Source: Fibrobacter succinogenes
GTDB taxonomy: Bacteria; Fibrobacterota; Fibrobacteria; Fibrobacterales; Fibrobacteraceae
Direction: 5' to 3'
Length of the DNA: 64,000 nucleotides
Assembly (NCBI GenBank): GCA_902779055.1
Contig: CACZAD010000007.1
Span: forward strand, 248,001 to 312,000
Shown here: piece after piece, positions 24,548 through 41,119 of the stretch
How positions within the stretch are numbered: position 1 is the first letter of the stretch
Layout: each line of letters opens with the position of its first letter
Notes under the pieces: model-generated
Database searches by the model: none
What the model was told of the DNA's origin: nothing
The model's input: the letters and a program-made list of their open reading frames with translations, nothing else
Program-made: the position numbers and the translations under genes

Positions 24548-24844
24548 ATGCAAATCAAAAAGAATATTGATGGTTCTGTTGAGTCGATAGCTTTGGAAGG
24601 TCGCCTGGACACGGTGACGGCTCCATTGCTGGAGTCTGAAATCCAGGGCAAGCTGGATGGTATCACGGAACTTCAGCTGGACTTTGCCAAGTTGGCTTAC
24701 ATATCTTCTGCGGGGCTGCGTGTGCTGCTCTCTGCTCAAAAGATTATGAATAAACAGGGAAAGATGGTCATCAAAAATGTATGTGCCGAAATCAAGGAAA
24801 TCTTCGAGATGACCGGCTTTTCGGATATTTTGACTGTTGTCTAG
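24548..24844 (+). CDS. STAS-domain anti-sigma factor antagonist
   Basis: 98 residues, a single STAS domain of normal length. The conserved phosphorylation region reads LAYISSAGLRVLLSAQK; the first Ser after I is the usual target of the partner kinase. AAGAGAGG precedes the ATG. It is co-transcribed with the RsbW-like kinase gene and should switch partner release by its phosphorylation state. Confidence 0.9.
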   Translation: MQIKKNIDGSVESIALEGRLDTVTAPLLESEIQGKLDGITELQLDFAKLAYISSAGLRVLLSAQKIMNKQGKMVIKNVCAEIKEIFEMTGFSDILTVV

Positions 24845-24912
24845 TTCTTGATAGATAGCTGAGACTGTTTGCGTTAAACAGGGAATAATGCAAACAAATC
24901 TCTGTGAATAAA

Positions 24913-24938
24913 GCCCTCGGGAATACCCGAGGGCTTTT
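24913..24938 (+). terminator. Terminator after the STAS gene
   Basis: GCCCTCGGG-AATA-CCCGAGGGC is followed by four T; a perfect 9-bp stem flanked by AAA. Confidence 0.9.
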
Positions 24939-25000
24939 ATAATATGACCGGCGGCTCGATTGCAATTTACACTGCGAAACCTCGCCGCCTCTCGCTTCCA

Positions 25001-25020
25001 TCGCCGATTAATATCGGCGA
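25001..25020. repeat. TTAATA-loop hairpin, copy 1
   Basis: TCGCCGA-TTAATA-TCGGCGA, perfect 7-bp stem. It is followed after CTCCA by GCTCACGA. Confidence 0.8.
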
Positions 25021-25037
25021 CTCCAGCTCACGACAAT

Positions 25038-25073
25038 CGCGTCATCCTGAACGCGAAGCGTGAAGGATCCAGT
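25038..25073. repeat. Palindromic repeat GTCATCCTGA...GAAGGATCCAGT
   Basis: The termini CGCGTCATCCTGA and GAAGGATCCAGT surround the hairpin ACGCGAAGCGT. Related copies lie at 46685-46722 and, in reverse orientation inside a coding region, at 28313-28348. Confidence 0.75.
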
Positions 25074-25076
25074 CAA

Positions 25077-25115
25077 TTACTTAACACCAATCAGAGACAG
25101 GTCGCGGACTGCACC
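25077..25115 (-). pseudogene. ilvD: Ghost of an ilvD 3' end
   Basis: Read on the minus strand, the stretch encodes [12 protein letters not shown] and a TAA stop, identical to the last 12 residues of the functional ilvD that ends at 25238. The DNA differs in seven of the 12 codons, all synonymously, including TCT versus AGC for Ser. It therefore comes from a diverged ilvD allele that was once under selection, not from a recent duplication. Confidence 0.85.
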
Positions 25116-25178
25116 ATGTGACGACCGGCGGCTCGATTGCAATTTACACTGCGATACCTCGCCACCTCTCGCCTTCGA

Positions 25179-25198
25179 CGACTCGTTAATACGAGTCG
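25179..25198. repeat. TTAATA-loop hairpin, copy 2
   Basis: CGACTCG-TTAATA-CGAGTCG, perfect 7-bp stem with arms unrelated to copy 1 but the same loop. It is followed after CCCTACG by GCTCACGA. Confidence 0.8.
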
Positions 25199-25237
25199 CC
25201 CTACGGCTCACGATTATGACCGGCGACTCGACAGTTA

Positions 25238-27094
25238 TTACTTCACGCCGATGAGGCTGAGGTCGCGGACTGCGCCCTTGTCTGCAGAGGATGCCATGGC
25301 GGCGTATGCCTGGAGAGCCTTGGACACGACGCGGTCGCGGTTTTCCGGCTTCCATGCCTTGGCGCCACGGGATTCCATTTCCTGACGGCGTGCGGCGAGT
25401 TCTTCGTCGGTGAGTTCCACGTTGATGGTGCGGTTCGGGATGTCGATTTCGATGACGTCGCCCGTGTGCACGAGACCGATGTTACCCTTGTTGGCGGCTT
25501 CCGGAGAAGCGTGGCCGATGGAGAGGCCGCTTGTACCACCGGAGAAACGACCGTCGGTGAGGAGGGCGCAGGACTTGCCGAGGTGACGGCTCTTGAGGTA
25601 AGAGGTCGGGTAGAGCATTTCCTGCATGCCCGGGCCACCCTTCGGGCCTTCGTAACGGATGACGACGACGTCGCCGGCCTTCACCTTGTTGCCGAGAATG
25701 CCGTTCACAGCTTCTTCCTGGCTTTCGAACACGATTGCCGGACCGGTGAACTTCCAAATGGATTCATCAACGCCTGCGGTCTTCACGATGCAGCCGTCGA
25801 TAGCGAGGTTACCGTAAAGAACAGCGAGGCCGCCGTCCTTGGTGTAAGCGTGTTCGCCATCGCGGATGGCACCGTTTGCGCGGTCGAGGTCGTGATCGGG
25901 GTACATGAAGTTCTGAGAGAATGCTTCGATGTTGTACTTGCGGCCCGGACCTGCGAGGTAGCGCTGCTTGGCTTCGGCAGTCGGATTACGCTTGAGGTCG
26001 TTTGCTTCGAGAGCGTCGCCCATCGTGGCGGCGTGAACAGTCTTTGCGCTCTTGTGGATGAGGCCCATGCGGTCGAGTTCACCGATGATGCCCATGATGC
26101 CGCCTGCGCGGTTCACGTTTTCGACGTGGATGTTGTGGACGGTCGGAGCGACCTTGCAGATGCACGGCGTGTTGCGAGAGAGGCGGTCGATGTCCTTCAT
26201 AGTGAAGTCCACGCCAGCTTCCTGAGCAACGGCGAGCAAGTGGAGAACGGTGTTAGAAGAACCGCCCATGGCGATGTCGAGGCGCATGGCGTTTTCGAAG
26301 GCGTCCTTCGTGGCGATGCTCCTCGGGAGGATGCTTTCGTCGTTCAAATCGTAATACTGGTGGCAGAGTTCCACGATGCGCTTTCCGGCGGCTTCGAAGA
26401 GCTTCTTGCGTTCGGCGTGCGTTGCAACGATGGTGCCGTTGCCCGGGAGGCTAAGGCCGAGGGCTTCGGTAAGGGAGTTCATGGAGTTTGCGGTGAACAT
26501 GCCGGAGCAGGAACCGCAAGTCGGGCAAGCGTTGGCTTCGATGTCGGCAACTTCTTCATCGCTGATGGTGTTGTCTGCAGAATCGATCATGGCGTCGATC
26601 AAGTCGAGGGCGCGGTCCTTGCCGTCCTTCGTCGTGACGTGGCCAGCTTCCATCGGACCGCCAGAAACGAAGATTGCCGGAATGTTGAGGCGCATGGCAG
26701 CCATGAGCATACCCGGAGTCACCTTGTCGCAGTTGGAAATGCAAACGAGTGCGTCTGCGCGGTGGGCGTTTGCCATGTATTCGGTGGCGTCTGCAATGAG
26801 GTCGCGGCTGGGAAGGCTATAGAGCATGCCGTCGTGGCCCATGGCGATACCGTCATCGACAGCGATGGTGTTCATTTCCTTGGCGACACCGCCGGCTGCT
26901 TCGATCGCGCGTGCGACAACCTGACCGACATCCTTGAGGTGGACATGACCCGGTACAAACTGGGTGTAGCTGTTCACCACGCAAATGACGGGCTTACCAA
27001 AGTCTTCCACCTTGGTTCCTGTTGCGTGCCAAAGGGCACGTGCACCGGCCATTTCACGGCCTTCCATAGTCTTGAGCGAACGAAGTTTCGGCAT
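25238..27094 (-). CDS. ilvD: Dihydroxy-acid dehydratase
   Basis: 618 residues, the long E. coli-like form. It dehydrates 2,3-dihydroxy acids to 2-keto acids in isoleucine and valine synthesis using an Fe-S cluster. Motifs: the cluster Cys in [11 protein letters not shown] and [19 protein letters not shown], the substrate region [13 protein letters not shown], and the C-terminal [34 protein letters not shown] precedes the ATG at 27094. The gene looks complete. The DNA just downstream carries a second, diverged copy of its last codons. Confidence 0.96.
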
Positions 27095-40211: not shown

Positions 40212-40420
40212 ATGCGAGTCCCATAACGGAACTCGCATAAAGACTTTGTCTAAAATCGAAGATTACTTCTTAGATTTCCGTGAGCAAAAAGCGACCCGTA
40301 TTAACGGGTCGTGATTGACGCTTTCAGCGTCCGCGGCTTTACTCGGTCATGAAATTATGCAAGCATAATTTCGCGACGCTCGTTTTGCACGCTTTTGCGA
40401 GAGCAAGCGCTCTGAAGGAT
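40212..40420. repeat. Cluster of palindromes between xynC and the Cys-cluster gene
   Basis: No gene is visible. Besides the TTAATA hairpin, TGCGAGT/ACTCGCA (40213-40237), GACGCT/AGCGTC (40317-40332) and AAATTATGC/GCATAATTT form further inverted repeats. Confidence 0.6.
40292..40311. repeat. TTAATA-loop hairpin, copy 3 (minus orientation)
   Basis: CGACCCG-TATTAA-CGGGTCG; on the minus strand the loop reads TTAATA. In that orientation CTTTTT and GCTCACGG follow, as in copies 1 and 2. Confidence 0.8.
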
Positions 40421-41119
40421 TTATTTCTTAGCTTTAGCGCTTGCGGTCTTTTTAGGCGGGTGTGCCGAAATCTTCTTCACGCTCTTGTCTTCATCCTTGG
40501 CAGCCTTTTCAGCTTCCTTGAACATGGCTTCCACCTGTTCGAGGGCGCCGTTCGGATCTTCTTCGATGATTTCAGAAGCTTCGTCAACGAGTTCGGCAAA
40601 TTCGTCGTACCAGTCAGCGAAAATTTCGACTTCGAGGTGATCCACACCCGGAACTGTCAAGCGCACGCCGCAGCTTTCGCCAACGCGGTCAAGGAACTTT
40701 GCAATTTCCGGACGGAGGAGGGAGAGGTCAAGACCTTCGAGGTCTTCCGGTTCCAAGAGAACGCCGTCAACCTTGTCGTCGTCTTCAGCCTTCTTGGACT
40801 TCTTCTTGTCGCCCTTCTTGCAGTTGCAGTTTTCACCGCAGCAGCATTCGTTGTTGAAGTCGCCGTTCATGGCGAGGTATTCTTCGTCATCGATGCCGCT
40901 GTCGTAGTAGAATTCGTCGTCTTCAAGATAAAGTGTTTCAACGAAGATGCTCTTTGCGCCGAGAGTCTTGGCTGCTGCCAAGAATTCCTTGAGGTCGCCG
41001 CCGAAGTAGCGAGTGGCTTCGGCTTCTTCGTTCAGAGTCTGAACCGGGATGGGAAGAAGCTTCTGCTTCTTGATGTGGTCGCAGACCAAGTCAGTAACGG
41101 ATTTTTCATTCTTAGCCAT
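40421..41119 (-). CDS. Acidic cytoplasmic protein with a five-cysteine cluster, unknown function
   Basis: 232 residues. No signal peptide. Residues 1-85 look folded (LVCDHIKKQKLLPIPVQTL, RYFGGDLKEFLAAAKTLGA) with Asp/Glu/Tyr-rich DDEFYYDSGIDDEEY. A short cluster ECCCGENCNCKKG (Cys 92, 93, 94, 98, 100) is followed by a Lys run, then a second acidic, helical domain (~118-205) and a Lys/Ala-rich tail ending ASAKAKK. The cluster could bind a metal. I do not recognise the family. It lies 34 bases downstream of dapA on the same strand and is probably co-transcribed. Confidence 0.75.
   Translation of the reverse strand: MAKNEKSVTDLVCDHIKKQKLLPIPVQTLNEEAEATRYFGGDLKEFLAAAKTLGAKSIFVETLYLEDDEFYYDSGIDDEEYLAMNGDFNNECCCGENCNCKKGDKKKSKKAEDDDKVDGVLLEPEDLEGLDLSLLRPEIAKFLDRVGESCGVRLTVPGVDHLEVEIFADWYDEFAELVDEASEIIEEDPNGALEQVEAMFKEAEKAAKDEDKSVKKISAHPPKKTASAKAKK

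What the first reader, a model, noticed from the sequence alone, without database searches (positions are those of the whole stretch)
25077..25115. Ghost ilvD tail with purely synonymous divergence
The last 12 residues and stop of ilvD occur again downstream, with seven codons changed and none altering the peptide (including TCT/AGC for Ser). This is the mark of a diverged allele once under selection. It suggests that ilvD was replaced by an allele from another strain and the old 3' end was left behind.
Basis: partly seen in the sequence, partly recalled or inferred. Interest (0 to 1): 0.7.

Follow-up and report, generated by a model that had tools for sequence, protein, structure and literature searches.

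The report
Gene-tail-swapping mini-elements in Fibrobacter
The leftover copy of the end of a metabolic gene is the footprint of a tiny, still unnamed element that repeatedly slips into the ends of the same few genes in Fibrobacter, brings a working replacement end with it and leaves the old end behind.

Summary
In detail: window 25077-25115 (-) repeats the last 12 codons and stop of ilvD, with 7 codons changed and no residue changed. It is not unique to this locus. Between the two tails lies an ~89-nt two-hairpin element ("E"), and a second E follows the ghost tail. E forms a strongly covarying family found in all 37 Fibrobacter genomes tested by model (1 to at least 43 copies each), in all 4 genomes of a sister genus, and in 0 of 59 other genomes of the phylum. 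It has no Rfam match. The layout gene - new tail - (terminator) - E - old tail recurs at ilvD in other Fibrobacter, at rplT (14 genomes), at tRNA-Arg(acg) (about 20) and at murC. In G004, G006 and G016 the ilvD reading frame switches abruptly near codon 576 to a shared, AT-rich foreign tail. At rplT and tRNA-Arg a ~14-nt sequence 5' of E is complementary to the insertion site and covaries with it. The best explanation is site-specific insertion of a mini-element that restores the gene's 3' end, as prophage e14 does in icd, but only ~0.15-0.35 kb long and with no integrase of its own. The enzyme is unknown; base-paired targeting is unproven.

The parts
25238..27094 (-). ilvD (dihydroxy-acid dehydratase), complete CDS
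   Evidence: ORF; Pfam ILVD_EDD_N 1e-126 and ILV_EDD_C 9.5e-74
25238..25276 (-). functional ('new') tail of ilvD: codons 607-618 and stop
   Evidence: codons 579-618 differ more from sister genomes G014/G001 than the rest of the gene does
25212..25237 (-). 26-nt spacer between the ilvD stop and E1; ends in ...CGCCGGTCATAATC, which looks like the 3' end of an earlier E copy
   Evidence: sequence; no guide-like complementarity to ilvD found here
25123..25211 (-). E1: two-hairpin element GTGAGC-hp1-GCGAGAG-hp2-CGGTC
   Evidence: covariance model R1, 61.7 bits, E 6.8e-16 (it is one of the 39 model sequences); covariation of the family
25116..25122 (-). right-end linker GTCACAT between E1 and the ghost tail; linkers of 6-8 nt follow CGGTC in the other ghost-bearing copies
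25077..25115 (-). ghost ilvD tail (12 codons and stop), 7 codons synonymously changed
25032..25076 (-). 45-nt segment with a dispersed intergenic repeat (GGATCCTTCACGCTTCGCGTTCAGGATGACG) between the ghost tail and E2
   Evidence: matches at other loci of the genome
24946..25031 (-). E2: second copy of the two-hairpin element
   Evidence: R1 59.0 bits, E 4.2e-15 (in the model); direct repeat of E1, D1
24910..24937 (.). terminator-like hairpin between the two convergent genes (ilvD and the STAS-domain gene 24548-24844 +)
   Evidence: inverted repeat I1; STAS gene
40280..40448 (+). third E copy in the window, with about 80 nt of extra hairpin DNA inside; antisense to the end of the ORF 40421-41119 (-)
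   Evidence: R1 45.5 bits, E 3.6e-11; sequence; ORF

Best explanation
The ghost tail is the displaced 3' end of ilvD, left by insertion of a very small mobile unit that carries its own functional 3' end for the target gene. Such a unit consists of a gene tail, usually a terminator, a short sequence complementary to the insertion site, and the two-hairpin element E. It enters at a fixed point inside the 3' end of a gene. The gene's reading frame or tRNA fold is completed by the incoming tail, and the old tail survives as a ghost starting 6-8 nt after E's CGGTC end. Later recombination between the two tails can remove E and leave a mosaic gene end. Shown here: the layout, its recurrence at four genes, the sharp switch to a foreign tail at ilvD, the covarying structure of E, and the complementarity at rplT and tRNA-Arg. 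Inferred: that the unit moves as such, probably as a circle in the manner of att-site integration. Also inferred: that an enzyme acts in trans, since no recombinase gene was found beside E, and that the complementary sequence takes part in target choice.
For: (1) Ghost tails occur at ilvD in G000, G006, G016 and G019, at rplT in 14 genomes, at tRNA-Arg(acg) in about 20 of the 52 genomes that match its 3' end and at murC in G004 and G012. (2) A direct-repeat test around E gave 15/110 sites with score >=18 versus 3/327 mismatched pairings. (3) The ghost starts 6-8 nt after CGGTC in nearly all examined copies. (4) In G004, G006 and G016 the ilvD tail from about codon 576 is a shared foreign, AT-rich tail (G004-G006 99% identical, 57-74% to the non-carriers) while codons 489-577 are 84-98% identical throughout. 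GC3 is 0.30-0.35 in the new tail of G006 and G016 against 0.59-0.68 in the ghost. (5) The ghosts of G006 and G016 resemble different native alleles (best matches G001 86% and G018 90%) yet start at the same base, which suggests separate insertions at one site. (6) Main and ghost differ mostly at synonymous sites in all five pairs tested (pS 0.66-1.16, pN 0.04-0.15). (7) Relatives without E have a single tail. (8) L200 and L204 carry a foreign middle segment followed, in L204, by the native end and no E, as expected from excision by recombination between tails. (9) At rplT the sequence 5' of E follows the target codon: CTT with AAG 5/5, ATG with CAT 9/9. At rplT and tRNA-Arg the complementarity is reached by 0-2 of 5000 shuffles.
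Against: No autonomous version with a recombinase was found, and no tyrosine recombinase, RT or Y1 transposase locus examined has an E beside it (the IS110 loci were not scanned). Most E copies (about 85%) show no flanking duplication. In the window itself and in G019 there is no guide-like complementarity upstream of E, and at murC it is no better than chance. In the window the main tail is GC-rich and the ghost AT-richer, the opposite of G006 and G016, so the order of events there is unclear. G007 has a tRNA-Arg unit with a different hairpin in place of E, so E may not be strictly required. Shared ancestry of some insertions means the genomes are not independent observations.
Confidence: 0.66

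Rival explanations
1. Ordinary homologous import of an ilvD allele from another strain (for example by transformation), with one crossover in ilvD and an illegitimate join downstream that left the old 3' end. E is only a passenger that was present behind the donor gene.
For: Explains the synonymous divergence and the leftover end. Tail types do switch between close relatives: G014 and G001 are 98% identical at codons 489-577 but 61% over the last 12 codons. Mosaic tails exist (L200, L204).
Against: The right junction lies at the same base in different species, 6-8 nt behind E's conserved end, and the same layout occurs at rplT, tRNA-Arg and murC. Passenger DNA would not give one structured element at every junction or a complementary sequence that covaries with the target.
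Confidence: 0.18
2. E is a mobile repeat whose insertion makes long target-site duplications of 30-130 bp; the ghost is simply the second copy of the duplicated target and has drifted.
For: Several sites look like X-E-X with nearly identical X: rplT in G014 and G000, the tRNA-Arg unit in G042, and a terminator at L043.
Against: A drifting ghost would collect amino-acid changes, but pS greatly exceeds pN in five pairs. The new tail in G004, G006 and G016 is foreign, not a copy of the resident one. The terminators (tRNA-Arg in G014, L050) and the 3' UTR (rplT in G012, L142) differ between the two copies.
Confidence: 0.07
3. Reverse-transcription model: an RNA reading gene tail - terminator - E is copied into the nicked target, starting at the 3' end of E, and the cDNA end is joined by homology to the upstream gene.
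For: The fixed 3' junction next to a structured RNA-like element and the homologous 5' side would fit. Base pairing with G.T/G.U wobble is seen at tRNA-Arg.
Against: RVT_1 proteins are absent from 14 of 17 genomes, including near-complete E-rich ones (G003, G004, G005, G010).
Confidence: 0.05
4. Assembly artefact: the spacer joins two strains in a mixed assembly.
For: The window's genome has estimated contamination of 7.9%.
Against: The same architecture is found in many unrelated assemblies, including near-complete ones with few contigs, and E is a genus-wide family.
Confidence: 0.04

Closest known systems
Prophage e14 / icd in Escherichia coli (integrase elements that reconstitute a protein gene's 3' end)
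   Same: Insertion inside the coding 3' end; the incoming tail keeps the protein intact; the old tail remains as a diverged fragment. PMC11148124 describes a 165-bp duplication with 12 nt exchanges and 2 conservative residue changes.
   Different: Here the inserted DNA is about 0.12-0.35 kb, with no integrase gene and no cargo. A two-hairpin element sits at the far junction, and at rplT and tRNA-Arg there is a sequence complementary to the target.
tRNA-targeting genomic islands and phages (tyrosine integrases using tRNA 3' ends)
   Same: The tRNA-Arg(acg) 3' end is restored by the insert and a 28-nt tRNA fragment is left behind.
   Different: Unit of only ~190-300 bp, sometimes present two times in tandem; no integrase in or beside it.
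REP/BIME and PATE/MITE-type palindromic repeats mobilised by Y1 (IS200/IS605-like) transposases
   Same: Small, non-coding, hairpin-bearing, intergenic, many copies, tandem arrays.
   Different: Y1_Tnp found in only 5 of 17 genomes and never beside E. As far as I know those repeats do not carry gene tails.
IS110/IS1111 elements guided by bridge RNA/seekRNA (PMC11187229)
   Same: Possible target choice by base pairing with a structured non-coding element.
   Different: No DEDD recombinase in 16 of 17 genomes. The complementarity is one continuous stretch across the junction. The unit carries a gene tail.

Membership tests
Integrase-type element that reconstitutes a gene 3' end (e14/icd-like, tRNA islands) | Functional gene completed by an incoming tail and old tail left as a fragment at the far junction | tested here: met
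   ilvD, rplT, tRNA-Arg, murC; foreign incoming tail
Integrase-type element that reconstitutes a gene 3' end (e14/icd-like, tRNA islands) | Element encodes an integrase/recombinase | tested here: not met
   Inserts are too short to encode one; no tyrosine recombinase locus of the 30 examined in 8 genomes has an E within the fetched flanks
Integrase-type element that reconstitutes a gene 3' end (e14/icd-like, tRNA islands) | Precise, recurrent insertion site | tested here: met
   Same junction in many genomes at rplT and tRNA-Arg; two junctions at ilvD
Integrase-type element that reconstitutes a gene 3' end (e14/icd-like, tRNA islands) | Excision as a circle | not testable with these tools
   Needs PCR or reads
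REP/PATE elements of Y1 transposases | Y1 transposase (RAYT/TnpA) in the genome, usually flanked by the repeats | tested here: not met
   Absent in 12 of 17 genomes including G003 and G010; no E near the seven Y1 loci found
IS110/IS1111 (bridge RNA / seekRNA) | DEDD_Tnp_IS110 recombinase | tested here: not met
   Found only in G006 of 17 genomes; its two loci were not scanned for E
Retroelements (group II intron, retron, TPRT) | Reverse transcriptase | tested here: not met
   RVT_1 in 3 of 17 genomes; absent from G000 and E-rich G003, G010
Known structured RNA family (Rfam 15) | Covariance-model match | tested here: not met
   No match to E1 or E2 near a gathering score
Functional structured RNA or ssDNA hairpin family (E itself) | Compensatory base changes across sequences | tested here: met
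   18 of 21 pairs with changes on both sides; score 0.575 versus 0.18 shuffled, 0/500

The most novel reading that the evidence does not exclude
A new class of mini mobile element in which a structured non-coding element (RNA or folded single-stranded DNA) selects its target by an adjacent ~14-nt complementary sequence. It inserts a ready-made replacement for the target gene's own 3' end, using a recombinase supplied in trans.
Probability: 0.3. Interest if true: 0.92.

Novelty: new variant of a known kind. Interest (0 to 1): 0.74.

Why it matters
If right, core genes of Fibrobacter, a major rumen cellulose degrader (ilvD, ribosomal protein L20, murC, tRNA-Arg), have their last codons exchanged again and again by elements of only a few hundred base pairs. 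That would be among the smallest site-specific integrating units known to me. It would also explain sudden tail-only allele switches that could mislead strain phylogenies. If target choice is by base pairing, the system would be a new guided insertion mechanism. The E family is in any case an undescribed, strongly covarying element present in up to dozens of copies per genome.

Tried and rejected
Hybrid att site: the window ghost looked like half allele A and half allele B with the crossover in a palindrome (TCAGAGAC-CT-GTCTCTGA). Rejected because G003 and G005 carry that mixture natively. Reverse-transcriptase mobilisation: RT absent from most genomes. Y1 transposase/REP: patchy and not beside E. 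IS110: found in 1 of 17. Tyrosine recombinase beside E: none. Phage or satellite carrying the tails or E: 0 matches in IMG/VR for the foreign ilvD tail, the tRNA-Arg tail and an E pattern. A general complementarity between the two flanks of E: not above control over all sites. Automatic gene-orientation statistics around E were unreliable because antisense ORFs are long in this genome. Rfam gave nothing for E. Literature searches found nothing on such repeats in Fibrobacter.

Full report
1. The observation. The stretch 25077-25115, read on the minus strand, is a second copy of the last 12 codons and stop of ilvD (25238-27094, minus strand; Pfam ILVD_EDD). Nine nucleotides in seven codons differ and the peptide is the same. 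Nine random substitutions kept the peptide in 0 of 200,000 trials.

2. What lies between the tails. The tails are 122 nt apart. Reading along ilvD, the order is: stop; a 26-nt spacer; an 89-nt element (25123-25211); a 7-nt linker; the ghost tail; a 45-nt segment with a dispersed repeat; a second copy of the element (24946-25031); and a terminator shared with the convergent STAS-domain gene. The element, called E here, has the plan GTGAGC - hairpin 1 - GCGAGAG - hairpin 2 - CGGTC. In 39 dissimilar copies, 18 of 21 base pairs show changes on both sides that keep the pair. The covariation score is 0.575 against 0.18 for shuffles (0/500) and 0.10 or less for slid structures. Rfam has nothing like it.

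3. Where E occurs. A covariance model finds E in all 37 Fibrobacter genomes of a phylum sample (1 to at least 43 copies; 18 in the window's genome), in 4 of 4 genomes of a sister genus, and in 0 of the other 59 genomes. E is sometimes tandem (for example L047/L048, L053, L065).

4. Ghost tails are recurrent. A search with IlvD in relatives found a second C-terminus behind ilvD in G006 and G016 (37 codons) and in G019 (12 codons), each after an E. A direct-repeat test over 110 E sites gave 15 with score >=18, against 3 of 327 mismatched pairings. The duplicated pieces are the 3' ends of rplT (ribosomal protein L20) and tRNA-Arg(acg), of ilvD and of murC, and at one site a terminator (L043). The name murC rests on my reading of the Mur-ligase-like protein, not on a family search. 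Pattern searches over 61 genomes found extra tRNA-Arg tails in about 20 of 52 positive genomes, 150-300 nt downstream, and extra rplT tails in 14 of 31, 236-441 nt downstream. The ghost begins 6-8 nt after E's CGGTC in nearly all examined copies. Relatives without E have a single tail.

5. The incoming tail is foreign. In G004, G006 and G016 the ilvD sequence changes abruptly near codon 576. Upstream (codons 489-577) all genus members are 84-98% identical. Downstream (579-605) these three are 90-99% identical to one another but only 57-74% identical to the non-carriers. The new tail is AT-rich (GC3 0.30-0.35 against 0.59-0.68 in the ghost of G006 and G016), and the murC tail in G004 shows the same contrast (0.29 against 0.52). 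Main and ghost differ chiefly at synonymous sites (pS 0.66-1.16, pN 0.04-0.15). In G016 the ghost and the DNA behind it match G022, which has no E, so the ghost is the native end and the functional tail is the newcomer. The ghosts of G006 and G016 are closest to different native alleles (G001 86%, G018 90%) but start at the same base, which suggests separate insertions at one site. G004 and L203 have the foreign tail without a ghost. L200 and L204 have a foreign middle segment and no E, L204 with the native end and native downstream DNA, as recombination between the two tails would produce.

6. A complementary sequence. At rplT and tRNA-Arg the ~14 nt directly 5' of E are the reverse complement of the target across the junction, for example rplT target ACTTG^GCCGTCGCC with GGCGATGGCCAAGT, and tRNA target AAAG^GCTCCAGGTTC with GAACCTGGRGCCTTT. 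Shuffles reach these scores 0-2 times in 5000. Where the rplT target codon is CTT the sequence reads AAG (5 genomes), and where it is ATG it reads CAT (9 genomes). In tRNA genes with GGTTCC the sequence has GGAACC. At ilvD of G006 and G016 the match is weaker (51 and 136 of 5000); at murC it is not significant (390 and 1686 of 5000); in the window and in G019 there is none. Relatedness of the genomes weakens the covariation argument, and over all E sites there is no general complementarity between the two flanks.

7. Mechanism. The most economical reading is site-specific integration of a short unit (tail, terminator, complementary stretch, E) that completes the gene's 3' end, as e14 does in icd (PMC11148124). 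The layout, recurrence, foreign tail, E structure and complementarity at two targets are shown. Movement as a unit or circle, the role of the complementary stretch, and the enzyme are inferred. No reverse transcriptase, Y1 transposase or tyrosine recombinase locus examined lies beside E. Reverse transcriptase (14 of 17 genomes), Y1 transposase (12 of 17) and IS110 recombinase (16 of 17) are missing from most genomes; the two IS110 loci of G006 were not scanned for E. Simple import of a whole ilvD allele does not explain the constant junctions, the constant element or the four target genes. A long target-site duplication does not explain the foreign tails. An assembly chimera does not explain the many independent assemblies.

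8. The window itself. Its functional tail from codon 579 on is closer to other Fibrobacter lineages than expected. Identity to the sister genomes G014 and G001 falls from 97% upstream to 89-90% over codons 579-605, about the same as to G003, G008, G010 and G020. The 26-nt spacer ends in what looks like the 3' end of another E. This locus has probably seen more than one event, and the order cannot be fixed from one genome.

Noticed in passing
window 40280-40448 (+) and ORF 40421-41119 (-): A third E copy in the window contains about 80 nt of extra hairpin DNA. The minus-strand ORF runs into E from its 3' side and takes its last codons (...KTASAKAKK) and stop from E; a short KSKK-stop-like sequence remains beyond E, perhaps another ghost tail.
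   Followed up: partly
L067, L090, L093, L095, L098, L108, L110, L125, L152 and others: Many E copies without ghost tails end right at the stop codon of a convergent gene (CGGTC followed by TCATTA, TTATAA and the like), as if E supplied or abutted the stop codon.
   Followed up: partly
L175 (G007 tRNA-Arg locus): Two tail - terminator - complement units in tandem with a different, unrelated hairpin in place of E.
   Followed up: no
L065 / L185 (G042:C1:111740-112363): A whole tRNA-tail - terminator - E - E unit is present twice in tandem, nearly identical, followed by a third tail; it looks like a recent re-insertion or tandem duplication.
   Followed up: partly
L046 (G000:C51:12408): An E copy whose first hairpin is interrupted by a longer hairpin-rich insert, next to an intact copy; similar to the third copy in the window.
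   Followed up: no
window 25032-25076; L002, L004, L005: A dispersed intergenic repeat of the type GGATCCTTC...AGGATGACG lies between the ghost tail and E2 and elsewhere in the genome; not part of E.
   Followed up: no
G095, G097, G122, G128 (sister genus g10): Four genomes of a second genus of the family carry 2-10 E copies; whether they also have ghost tails was not checked.
   Followed up: no
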